Positions 49,209 through 53,880 of a DNA stretch of 64,000 nucleotides are shown here, piece by piece. The notes below the pieces were generated by a model that saw nothing but the letters and a program-made list of their open reading frames with translations, ran no database searches and was not told the origin of the DNA. The translations under genes and the position numbers were made by a program. Source of the DNA: a virus; the IMG/VR virus record IMGVR_UViG_3300035698_007281, positions 29,512 through 93,511 of that record, one strand, 5' to 3'. Position 1 is the first letter of the stretch. Every line of letters starts with the position of its first letter.

Positions 49209-49536
49209 GGTTGCGTTCTGTCGTTCAGTCGGCCAGTTGATTGTGTCCAGGATGCGGTTTACCTACGGTGAAAGGGTGGCCCCGTTCCTGGATGATATAC
49301 GTGGGGAGTCTGTCCTGCTGGCCGTTCAGGTCAGTCAGGACTTTCCGTCGTTGGTGGGACACCATTGTCCCCCGGAGACTCTGGAGGAGATCGAGGCGGG
49401 AGTCGTTGCCCATCTCACCTACCAGGGAATCCTGGGCGAAACAATAACTGAGATACTGTCTGGAGAGGCCCTGGAGGCGCGGTGTGCGCCCGTCGAGGGC
49501 TTCTCTTCATTGGAGGAATCAAACGATGAAACTTGA
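49174..49536 (+). CDS. Protein of unknown function
   Basis: The 120-residue protein begins MPTPDGVDEGARVAFCRSV and is mostly helical and acidic near the end. It overlaps the XkdF-like gene start by 11 bases. No family was recognised. Confidence 0.5.
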   Translation: MPTPDGVDEGARVAFCRSVGQLIVSRMRFTYGERVAPFLDDIRGESVLLAVQVSQDFPSLVGHHCPPETLEEIEAGVVAHLTYQGILGETITEILSGEALEARCAPVEGFSSLEESNDET

Positions 49537-50881
49537 AGAAGTGACCCCTGACAACATCCGAGGCGTTGACCAGATCTCCGACGAGGAACTCCTGAACCTT
49601 CGGGAACGGGCCAACCAACTCTACCGGACCGCGACCGCCTGGGAGCGACACCTCCGGAAGTCCGTGGTGGGTGTGAACCAACCGATCCAGAAGGACGAAC
49701 TCATGGAGGCCTACGTGGCCCTGCGCGAGGAGATGAAGTCCCGAGGGTTGGACTCCGGCCGGACGCCGACGGCCCTGGACCGGAAGTTCCTCCGGAAGTC
49801 GATGAGAGGTTTCGACGTGTCTGACCTTCCGCCGGTCGTGGTGGCCGAGGGTGTGGTGGTTCTGGACGGGCTGATGGTGGGTAATCCGAAGGCGGCCTCC
49901 GTGGCCTCGGTCAGGATCGACGGGGACCAGTTCGGGAACGGGTACTTCACCAATGCTTTGGAGAAGCGAGTGGTGACACACTTCCTGGATCAGGTGGATC
50001 TCCCCGCCGTGGTCCGCCGGGACAATGCGGATCTCGATGGGCCGATCCTTTCCCTCTACGACCTCGTCCTGGTTCCCCGCCTGTCTTCGGATGGGGAGGT
50101 GGGCCTGGATGACCTGAGGAAACGCCTGGGACCGCCTGAGGGCGACGATCTCCCTGAAGACGACTCCCTGGCGGCCGAGGCCCCCGAAACGCCCTCAGAT
50201 GATGAACCCGAACCCTTCCTCACCGTCGAGGATGTGACGAAGTACCGGAACCCGGCCCATGTGGTTCAGTTGGTCCCCCTGAGTCCGGAGTTTGCGACCT
50301 ACGAGACCAAGGCCGACCATTTCGGGCCGGGGATCTCGGTGACCTACGGCCTCCTGGAGAAGACCGGGAAGTCGAAACTCGTGGCCATCAGGTTTGACGC
50401 CAAGGAGTTCTTGGCCTCGGCCGCCGAGGATTGGGTCAAGGGTTTCGGGTACTGGACCGACGAGGCCCGGATGAAACCGGCCGAAGTTCTGGCGAAGCGG
50501 GAACCGGACGATTCTCCCTTCCTCAAGAACGAGGACCAACGCATCGTGGGCGGGGTGGTGTACTATCTGAACAAGGTTGACGCCCAGGGCGATTTTATGG
50601 ATGACTTCCGGGAACTCTTCGACGCCATGAAGTCCTGGATGATCACCGGCCACGTCATGAAGGTGATGCACAACGGCCATCCGGTCGAAACCCCTCTGGT
50701 TGAATGCTTCATGGCCGAGGGGCCGTGTGAGAAGGGAGGTTGCAAACTGGAGAAGGGTGACTGGTACATCTCCAACTACATCCCCGAGGAGGCCGAGGGC
50801 CTCTGGCAGGACATCCGCGACGGCAAGATCACCGGTTACTCGATGGGAGGCGCGGCGACCGAAGTCGAAGACGTGTATTGA
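49526..50881 (+). CDS. XkdF-like prohead serine protease
   Basis: The 451-residue protein ends with an XkdF-type domain: YYLNKVDAQGDFMDDFRELFDAM, ITGHVMKVMHNGHPVETPLVECFM, GDWYISNYIPEEAEGLWQDI and GKITGYSMGGAATEVE. These proteases cut scaffold and capsid proteins during head maturation. The N-terminal ~250 residues are unassigned and acidic in the middle. GGAGGAATCAAACG precedes ATG 49526. Confidence 0.72.
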   Translation: MKLEEVTPDNIRGVDQISDEELLNLRERANQLYRTATAWERHLRKSVVGVNQPIQKDELMEAYVALREEMKSRGLDSGRTPTALDRKFLRKSMRGFDVSDLPPVVVAEGVVVLDGLMVGNPKAASVASVRIDGDQFGNGYFTNALEKRVVTHFLDQVDLPAVVRRDNADLDGPILSLYDLVLVPRLSSDGEVGLDDLRKRLGPPEGDDLPEDDSLAAEAPETPSDDEPEPFLTVEDVTKYRNPAHVVQLVPLSPEFATYETKADHFGPGISVTYGLLEKTGKSKLVAIRFDAKEFLASAAEDWVKGFGYWTDEARMKPAEVLAKREPDDSPFLKNEDQRIVGGVVYYLNKVDAQGDFMDDFRELFDAMKSWMITGHVMKVMHNGHPVETPLVECFMAEGPCEKGGCKLEKGDWYISNYIPEEAEGLWQDIRDGKITGYSMGGAATEVEDVY

Positions 50882-52806: not shown

Positions 52807-52836
52807 CCCTGGGGGTGGCCGACACCACCCCCAGGG
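52807..52836 (+). other. 12-bp perfect hairpin before the tmRNA-like element
   Basis: CCCTGGGGGTGG pairs perfectly with CCACCCCCAGGG across a six-base loop. No T-run follows, so it is more likely an RNA-processing or protective stem than a terminator. Confidence 0.5.
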
Positions 52837-52851
52837 TATGAGTTGCAAGCC

Positions 52852-52987
52852 GGGGACGTGATGGTATCGACGGCACGGCCAGCAAGATCTCGGAGGTGGT
52901 ACTCCGACCTGGACAAACGCTCAAGTGAACACCAGGGAGATCCCGAGTGACAGTGACCGGACAAGAGTTCGACTCTCTTCGTCTCCA
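52852..52987 (+). ncRNA. Miniature tmRNA-like RNA
   Basis: The 5' end GGGGACGTGATGGTATCGACG matches the tmRNA start (GGGG...GG..TCGACG). The 3' end GGAC-AAGAG-TTCGACT-CTCTT-CGTCTCC matches the tmRNA T-arm and acceptor strand. GGGGACG pairs with CGTCTCC over 7 bp, including one G-U. GATCTC and GAGATC in the middle could form helix P2. At 136 nt it is far shorter than typical tmRNAs (about 350-400 nt). There is no room for the usual pseudoknots, no clear LAA-type tag, and CCA is not encoded. Confidence 0.55.
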
Positions 52988-53070: not shown

Positions 53071-53087
53071 GCTAGGAGCATGTTTGA

Positions 53088-53218
53088 TCGGGAGTGGCGG
53101 AATCGGCAGACGCGCCGGGATATAAACCGGTGGACACAATCTAATCGGCCCCCTAACCTGCGCGCGGGTCGGGCCTGAGAGATTCTTGTCCTTGCAGGAT
53201 CATACCCTGCCTCCCGAG
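53088..53218 (+). tRNA. tRNA-Leu-like RNA with a giant variable arm
   Basis: Acceptor TCGGGAG pairs with CTCCCGA (7 bp). TG, then the D-arm GCG-GAATCGGCAGA-CGC, is Leu-like. The T-arm is GCAGG-ATCATAC-CCTGC with an atypical T-loop. The anticodon stem GCCGG/CCGGT holds an 8-base loop (GATATAAA), so the anticodon is unclear (ATA or TAA). The variable arm spans ~65 bases and can stack four helices (GGACA/TGTCC, AATCT/AGATT, GGCCC/GGGCC, ACCTG/CGGGT). Total ~130 nt against ~85 for normal class II tRNAs. Confidence 0.5.
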
Positions 53219-53351
53219 TGGGCAAGCGCCCAAGAAGTGAGTCCACGAATGGCAGACCCCGGACTCAGGGGGCATCGGATACCATGACGCTTTCCGGTGC
53301 TGCAACCGAAAAACCGTGACTGTCTGACGGCCGGGAACAGACCGGCAATAT

Positions 53352-53425
53352 CGCGGGATAGTTCAGTGGCCTAGAACGCCGGACTCATAATCCGGAAGTC
53401 GTGGGTTCGACTCCCACTCCCGCAA
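53352..53425 (+). tRNA. tRNA-Met (anticodon CAT)
   Basis: A regular cloverleaf: D-arm GTTC...GAAC, anticodon stem CCGGA/TCCGG with loop CTCATAA (CAT), T-arm GTGGG-TTCGACT-CCCAC. The acceptor GCGGGA/TCCCGC has a C-A mismatch at the first pair. A CAT anticodon could also be an Ile tRNA after lysidine modification. Confidence 0.85.
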
Positions 53426-53479
53426 ATGTCGTAAGGCCTACGACTCCGTCGGAGACAAAGGACATGGTTCCGAGATCCG

Positions 53480-53530: not shown

Positions 53531-53606
53531 CAGTGCGTATCTCAAAAAACCCCACAGGGTAGAGACCGGCAAGCCGGAGATCCTGGTTCGAGTCCAGGCG
53601 CGCGTG
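53531..53606 (+). ncRNA. tRNA-like RNA lacking an anticodon loop
   Basis: It has a canonical T-arm (CCTGG-TTCGAGT-CCAGG), TA before the D-arm TCTC...GAGA, and a partial acceptor (GTGCG against CGCGC). The D-loop is swollen by a CCCC/GGG insert. The anticodon arm is reduced to CCGG-caag-CCGG, with no seven-base loop. An outer stem GGCCACA/TGTGGCC (53526-53532, 53609-53615) encloses it. It could be a decayed tRNA or a tRNA mimic. Confidence 0.5.
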
Positions 53607-53845: not shown

Positions 53846-53880
53846 AAGAGGCCCCGGAATGGTTCCGGGGCCTCTTCTTT
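53846..53880. terminator. Bidirectional terminator between converging blocks
   Basis: A perfect 14-bp stem (53846-53859 with 53863-53876, three-base loop) is followed by CTTTATT on the plus strand and by TTTTCG on the minus strand. It closes both the RNA region and the leftward block starting at 53919. Confidence 0.85.

What the first reader, a model, noticed from the sequence alone, without database searches (positions are those of the whole stretch)
52852..52987. Miniature tmRNA-like RNA of only 136 nt
Both ends match the tRNA-like domain of tmRNA, with 7-bp pairing and the diagnostic TCGACG and GGAC..TTCGA elements. The body is a third of the usual length. No recognisable degradation tag is seen. 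It may be a stripped-down decoy that competes for SmpB or alanyl-tRNA synthetase, or a decayed remnant.
Basis: partly seen in the sequence, partly recalled or inferred. Interest (0 to 1): 0.85.

Follow-up and report, generated by a model that had tools for sequence, protein, structure and literature searches.

The report
Phage tag-less tmRNA decoy candidate
A phage carries a 136-base RNA that keeps the tRNA-shaped part of the bacterial ribosome-rescue RNA (tmRNA) but has lost the part encoding the degradation tag; it belongs to a widespread, mostly unannotated family of such phage RNAs that probably jam or hijack the host's ribosome-rescue system.

Summary
Window 52852-52987 (+) is a real 136-nt tmRNA-like RNA (RF00023 47.7 bits, E 8.8e-16). 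Its tRNA-like domain (TLD) is intact: 7-bp acceptor with the alanine determinant G3·U70, A73, TCGACG, CGGAC and T-arm. It has a short P2, a predicted three-way-junction cap and no tag frame; ARAGORN misses it. It is not an isolated relic. Pattern and covariance-model searches found 93 distinct TLD-only RNAs, mostly 76-80 nt, in the fetched loci, in about 57 sequence clusters, with strong covariation and near-invariant G3·U70. A model built without the window sequence scores it 50 bits, E 2.3e-10. Carrier phage records show no SmpB and no second tmRNA; five bacterial genomes carrying one also keep a full-length tmRNA. A TLD-only phage tmRNA was known from mycobacteriophage DS6A; this kind of RNA inhibited tmRNA in E. 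coli (PMC4131195, PMC11915505). Best reading: an alanylatable decoy that blocks trans-translation. The mechanism is inferred, not shown. The window member is a long-cap variant of a known kind; the breadth of the family is the new part.

The parts
52852..52987 (+). tag-less tmRNA-like RNA, 136 nt, 5' acceptor base to discriminator A73
   Evidence: RF00023 47.7 bits; R2 50.0 bits
52852..52858 (+). acceptor stem, 5' strand (pairs with 52980-52986; G3·U70)
   Evidence: sequence; 7 of 7 paired
52859..52872 (+). D-loop-like region with TGG..TATCGAC, no D stem
   Evidence: alignment
52871..52876 (+). P2, 5' strand (CGGCAC; pairs with 52953-52959, A52956 bulged)
   Evidence: R2 alignment; sequence
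52886..52942 (+). predicted three-way-junction cap replacing the mRNA-like domain (GATCTC/GAGATC closing stem, hairpins GGAG/CTCC and CCTGG/CCAGG)
   Evidence: fold -21.6 kcal/mol, z -1.64, 9 of 200 shuffles as good, for 52885-52946; no covariation evidence
52953..52959 (+). P2, 3' strand
   Evidence: R2 alignment
52963..52979 (+). T-arm (AAGAG-TTCGACT-CTCTT)
52980..52987 (+). acceptor stem, 3' strand, and discriminator A73 (CCA not encoded)
52807..52836 (+). strong 12-bp hairpin just upstream; terminator or processing element
   Evidence: -28 kcal/mol, z -4.4
53351..53426 (+). tRNA-Met (CAT), same cluster
   Evidence: ARAGORN; RF00005 68.5 bits
53622..53696 (+). tRNA-Glu (TTC), same cluster
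   Evidence: ARAGORN; RF00005 58.2 bits
53846..53876 (+). terminator-like hairpin closing the RNA cluster

Best explanation
The RNA is a phage-encoded, tag-less tmRNA that acts as a competitive decoy of host trans-translation. After tRNA-type end processing and CCA addition, host AlaRS charges it with alanine through G3·U70/A73. Host SmpB and EF-Tu bind it as they bind tmRNA, and it either titrates SmpB or enters the A site of ribosomes stalled at mRNA ends. Having no resume codon or tag frame, it cannot tag the nascent protein, so trans-translation is blunted during infection. Shown here: the intact TLD, the missing tag, the wide conserved family with covariation, the near-invariant alanine determinant, no phage SmpB found, and a full-length tmRNA present in bacterial genomes that carry such an RNA. 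Inferred: expression, alanylation, SmpB binding, inhibition, and benefit to the phage.
For: TLD intact and end-to-end tmRNA match. No tag frame. 93 distinct relatives, about 57 clusters. Covariation score 0.573 against 0.124 shuffled. G3·U70 plus A73 in 75 of 79 distinct candidates found by patterns that did not specify them. No SmpB, no second RF00023 hit over cut-off and no permuted tmRNA over cut-off in 50 carrier records; no SmpB in the window's own record. Five bacterial genomes with a compact RNA also have a full-length tmRNA. Literature: a TLD-only molecule like that of phage DS6A strongly inhibits tmRNA, perhaps by titrating SmpB (PMC4131195; PMC11915505).
Against: No expression or binding data. 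The reported inhibition did not need alanine charging (PMC4131195), whereas the family keeps the alanine determinant, so simple SmpB titration may not be the natural mode. The window member is the longest and its P2 has a bulge. Many carrier records are fragments.
Confidence: 0.55

Rival explanations
1. Tag-less rescue: the alanylated TLD with SmpB is a working, simplified rescue RNA. It takes over the nascent chain from ribosomes on broken mRNAs, adds alanine, and the complex is then resolved by drop-off, peptidyl-tRNA hydrolase or another release pathway. The phage gains ribosome recycling without destruction of its proteins.
For: Near-invariant G3·U70/A73 suggests that the charged form matters. 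CDS-less mitochondrial tmRNAs are conserved with SmpB and are suggested to help with incomplete mRNAs (PMC11915505).
Against: No known step frees the ribosome after peptidyl transfer without a stop codon. A TLD-only RNA was reported to inhibit tmRNA (PMC4131195).
Confidence: 0.2
2. RNA punctuation: the tRNA-like fold is mainly a cis element that RNase P and the tRNA 3' processing enzymes cut, setting mRNA ends in the head operon or tRNA cluster.
For: In several phages the RNA sits directly between head genes: protease and capsid, or terminase and portal.
Against: Processing alone would not need a near-invariant G3·U70 or the tmRNA-specific D-loop region; an ordinary tRNA would serve. Many copies lie in tRNA arrays.
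Confidence: 0.1
3. Decayed remnant: a full-length tmRNA that lost its tag domain and is drifting.
For: A single long-cap sequence with a bulged P2. Two nearby tRNA-like sequences look degenerate by eye. No relative with the same cap was found.
Against: All 24 positions listed as invariant are intact (those inside the search pattern are not independent evidence). The acceptor is 7/7 paired with G·U at 3-70. The wider family shows compensatory change.
Confidence: 0.1

Closest known systems
Mycobacteriophage DS6A TLD-only tmRNA (Mao et al. 2009, as cited in PMC4131195 and PMC11915505)
   Different: The window RNA has an extra ~57-nt three-way-junction cap. The DS6A sequence was not in the collections under the two accessions I tried, so no direct alignment was made
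Standard one-piece tmRNA / SsrA (RF00023)
   Same: Acceptor with G3·U70, A73, D-loop region, P2, CGGAC and T-arm; scores over the gathering cut-off
   Different: No resume codon, tag frame or pseudoknots; 136 instead of about 350-410 nt
Full-length phage tmRNAs (e.g. L009, 412 nt; Streptomyces BE2 cluster with tag ANSKFAFALAA)
   Same: Phage-borne, same TLD
   Different: Those encode a tag
CDS-less organellar tmRNAs (mitochondrial; ~65-bp plastid forms, PMC11915505)
   Same: TLD without tag frame
   Different: Organellar, not viral; most CDS-less entries are permuted (72 permuted against 9 standard)
tRNA-Ala
   Same: G3·U70 and A73 alanine identity, T-arm
   Different: No D stem and no anticodon arm; no tRNA call by ARAGORN or RF00005 at this site

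Membership tests
tmRNA (RF00023), full-function | tRNA-like domain: acceptor with G3·U70, A73, D-loop region without D stem, T-arm | tested here: met
tmRNA (RF00023), full-function | P2 helix next to CGGAC | tested here: met
   six pairs with one bulged A in the R2 alignment; alternative pairings compete in free folding
tmRNA (RF00023), full-function | Resume codon and tag reading frame with stop | tested here: not met
   no tag-like peptide in any frame; no ARAGORN call
tmRNA (RF00023), full-function | Pseudoknots of the mRNA-like domain | tested here: not met
   about 304 model positions between the matched ends are replaced by about 70 nt
Permuted tmRNA (RF04321, RF01849-51) | 3' half before 5' half | tested here: not met
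   ends are in normal order; no hit to permuted models
TLD-only phage tmRNA (DS6A kind) | TLD present, no tag coding sequence, phage-encoded | tested here: met
   R2 model 50 bits
TLD-only phage tmRNA (DS6A kind) | Inhibits host tmRNA | not testable with these tools
   literature statement only, for a similar molecule (PMC4131195, PMC11915505)
TLD-only phage tmRNA (DS6A kind) | Binds SmpB and accepts alanine | not testable with these tools
   sequence determinants present; no assay
tRNA | Cloverleaf with D arm and anticodon arm | tested here: not met
   no tRNA call at this site

The most novel reading that the evidence does not exclude
Phages of many lineages carry a common, unrecognised class of alanylatable tag-less tmRNA as a counter-measure against host trans-translation, either as a dominant-negative RNA that enters stalled ribosomes or as a tag-less rescue RNA. 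The window RNA is a structurally elaborated form whose three-way-junction cap adds a function of its own.
Probability: 0.3. Interest if true: 0.82.

Novelty: new variant of a known kind. Interest (0 to 1): 0.6.

Why it matters
Trans-translation is near-universal in bacteria. A widespread phage RNA aimed at it would make it a regular battleground in infection and would give a natural minimal inhibitor of a pathway studied as a drug target. The only phage precedent named in the literature I found is DS6A, within 9 'Standard, no CDS' entries among 97,179 tmRNAs (PMC11915505). These searches raise that to about 57 sequence clusters, including at least seven named phages (Streptomyces LuckySocke, BRock, pSt2308, Riptide, Alone3; Stenotrophomonas Jojan60; Pontimonas phiPsal1), in none of which it is annotated as tmRNA, so the question is directly testable.

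Tried and rejected
Close relatives of this exact RNA: none among INPHARED phages. Two distant relatives of neighbouring genes, at 50-51% protein identity, were fetched (L003, L218) and no TLD RNA was found in either. Genome-collection scan: most of its 27 hits were 3' ends of ordinary Rokubacteria tmRNAs and were rejected; six look real. crAss-like, Chryseobacterium and several Pseudomonas/Acinetobacter/Alcaligenes/Xanthomonas/Synechococcus phage hits turned out to be permuted or full-length tmRNAs, not compact forms. An att-site remnant was considered for the window and rejected, because such copies carry only the 3' end while both ends are present here; Shandong1, by contrast, has a 32-bp 3'-end match beside an integrase. 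The first alignment, A1, misplaced the 5' acceptor and was not used for pair counts. Whole-RNA folding energy is uninformative. A scan for longer forms (gap 103-133) gave only one candidate passing the checks, L246, which looks like part of an ordinary tmRNA. Mao et al. 2009 is not held, and the DS6A record was not found under the two accessions tried.

Full report
What is there. The window is part of a 93,511-base viral record with terminase, portal, head protease and major capsid genes. On the + strand at 52852-52987 lies a 136-nt RNA that Rfam's tmRNA model matches end to end (47.7 bits, E 8.8e-16). ARAGORN does not report it. The tRNA-like domain is complete: acceptor GGGGACG/CGTCTCC, 7 of 7 paired with G3·U70; discriminator A73; D-loop region GATGGTATCGACGG without a D stem; CGGAC; and T-arm AAGAG-TTCGACT-CTCTT. 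CCA is not encoded. The mRNA-like domain is replaced by about 80 nt. That stretch holds a 6-bp P2 with one bulged A, as aligned by model R2, and a predicted three-way junction (-21.6 kcal/mol, z -1.64). No frame contains a tag-like peptide.

It has relatives. Requiring at least 6 acceptor pairs and 4 T-stem pairs left 79 distinct sequences trimmed at A73. Of these, 75 have G3·U70 and A73, although neither was in the pattern or the filter. A covariance model from nine 78-nt sequences found 93 distinct matches in the fetched loci, 88 with G3·U70 and A73. Most are 76-80 nt; some are 91-121 nt, and the window's is the longest. The better-supported ones form about 57 clusters at 80% identity. On the model alignment 97% of pair cells are standard, with covariation score 0.573 against 0.124 for shuffles and at most 0.102 for slid versions. 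That alignment is fitted to the structure and related rows are not independent, so the numbers are indicative. A second model built from 40 other sequences scores the window's RNA 50.0 bits, E 2.3e-10. E-values from these models are rough.

What the conservation says. Pairs 4-69, 5-68 and 6-67 change freely with compensation, while 3-70 stays a G·U wobble. From established knowledge, G3·U70 is the major AlaRS identity element. Charging with alanine thus appears to be under selection across the family. The conserved TCGAC and CGGAC cannot be used as independent evidence, because the search pattern required them.

Distribution and context. In named phages the compact RNA is present in Streptomyces LuckySocke and BRock, Stenotrophomonas Jojan60 and Pontimonas phiPsal1, and in Streptomyces pSt2308, Riptide and Alone3. 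GiJojo has a 97% match. None is annotated as tmRNA. The RNAs sit in tRNA arrays, or in the head operon between protease and capsid gene or between terminase and portal. The window's element follows a sigma-factor-like gene, leads a small tRNA cluster ending at a terminator-like hairpin at 53846-53876, and lies between the protease and capsid genes. Fifty carrier records hold no SmpB, no permuted tmRNA over cut-off and no second RF00023 hit over cut-off; many are fragments. The window's own record also lacks SmpB. Five bacterial genomes with a compact RNA each also encode a separate full-length tmRNA. Where both could be read, the acceptor stems were the same in two of four genomes and close in a third.

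How it most likely works. A TLD-only tmRNA was reported from mycobacteriophage DS6A. A molecule of that kind strongly inhibits tmRNA, perhaps by titrating SmpB and whether or not it can be charged (PMC4131195), and the inhibition was seen in E. coli (PMC11915505). The simplest reading here is the same: the phage RNA uses host AlaRS, EF-Tu and SmpB, lacks a message, and so competes with host tmRNA and lowers tagging. The near-invariant alanine determinant suggests that the charged RNA matters in nature, which points to ribosome entry beyond simple SmpB binding, or to a tag-less rescue activity. These steps are inference; nothing here shows expression, charging or inhibition.

Against decay. The window's RNA keeps all 24 positions listed as invariant in 57 aligned relatives, though those inside the search pattern are not independent. 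No relative with the same cap was found, so selection on the cap cannot be tested. Two neighbouring tRNA-like sequences look degenerate by eye, which keeps decay possible for this copy.

Novelty. TLD-only phage tmRNA is a known kind, but it is thinly documented: 9 'Standard, no CDS' entries among 97,179 tmRNAs in PMC11915505. The window member is a new, larger-capped variant, and the size and breadth of the family appear unreported in the literature I could search. Subscription journals and supplementary tables could not be searched.

Noticed in passing
window 53087-53215 (+): tRNA-Leu-like sequence with perfect acceptor (TCGGGAG/CTCCCGA), an 8-nt anticodon loop, a very long variable arm and a non-standard T-loop (ATCATAC); not called by ARAGORN or Rfam (fold z -2.0).
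   Followed up: partly
window ~53533-53605 (+): Second degenerate tRNA-like sequence: normal T-arm (CCTGGTTCGAGTCCAGG) but the anticodon loop appears deleted (CCGG-CAAG-CCGG) and the D-loop is enlarged; read by eye.
   Followed up: no
window 52807-52836 (+): Strong 12-bp hairpin (-28 kcal/mol, z -4.4) without a T run, 15 nt upstream of the RNA.
   Followed up: no
window 49520-50878 and 57988-58863 (+): Two ORFs 7 kb apart match different parts of the same head-protease family, phrog_3017, with the RNA cluster and other genes between them.
   Followed up: no
L224:2121-2532 and L224:2842-2898 (Gordonia phage GMA2): Unannotated full-length tmRNA (94.6 bits) and a Pistol ribozyme (56.8 bits) at the phage's tRNA array.
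   Followed up: no
L223, L226, L227, L228 (Pseudomonas SM1, Acinetobacter BUCT628, Alcaligenes QDWS595, Xanthomonas Rb1): Permuted tmRNA genes over the Rfam cut-off that are not annotated in these phage records.
   Followed up: no
L230:865-1031 and L237:123-301 (crAss-like phages cr50_1, cr10_1): RAGATH-22 and RAGATH-9 RNAs lie within about 1.3 kb upstream of permuted tmRNA genes.
   Followed up: no
G047:C59 and G047:C57 (rumen Bacillota genome of L200): Two compact TLD-only RNAs (64.0 and 63.6 bits) beside one full-length tmRNA in one genome.
   Followed up: no
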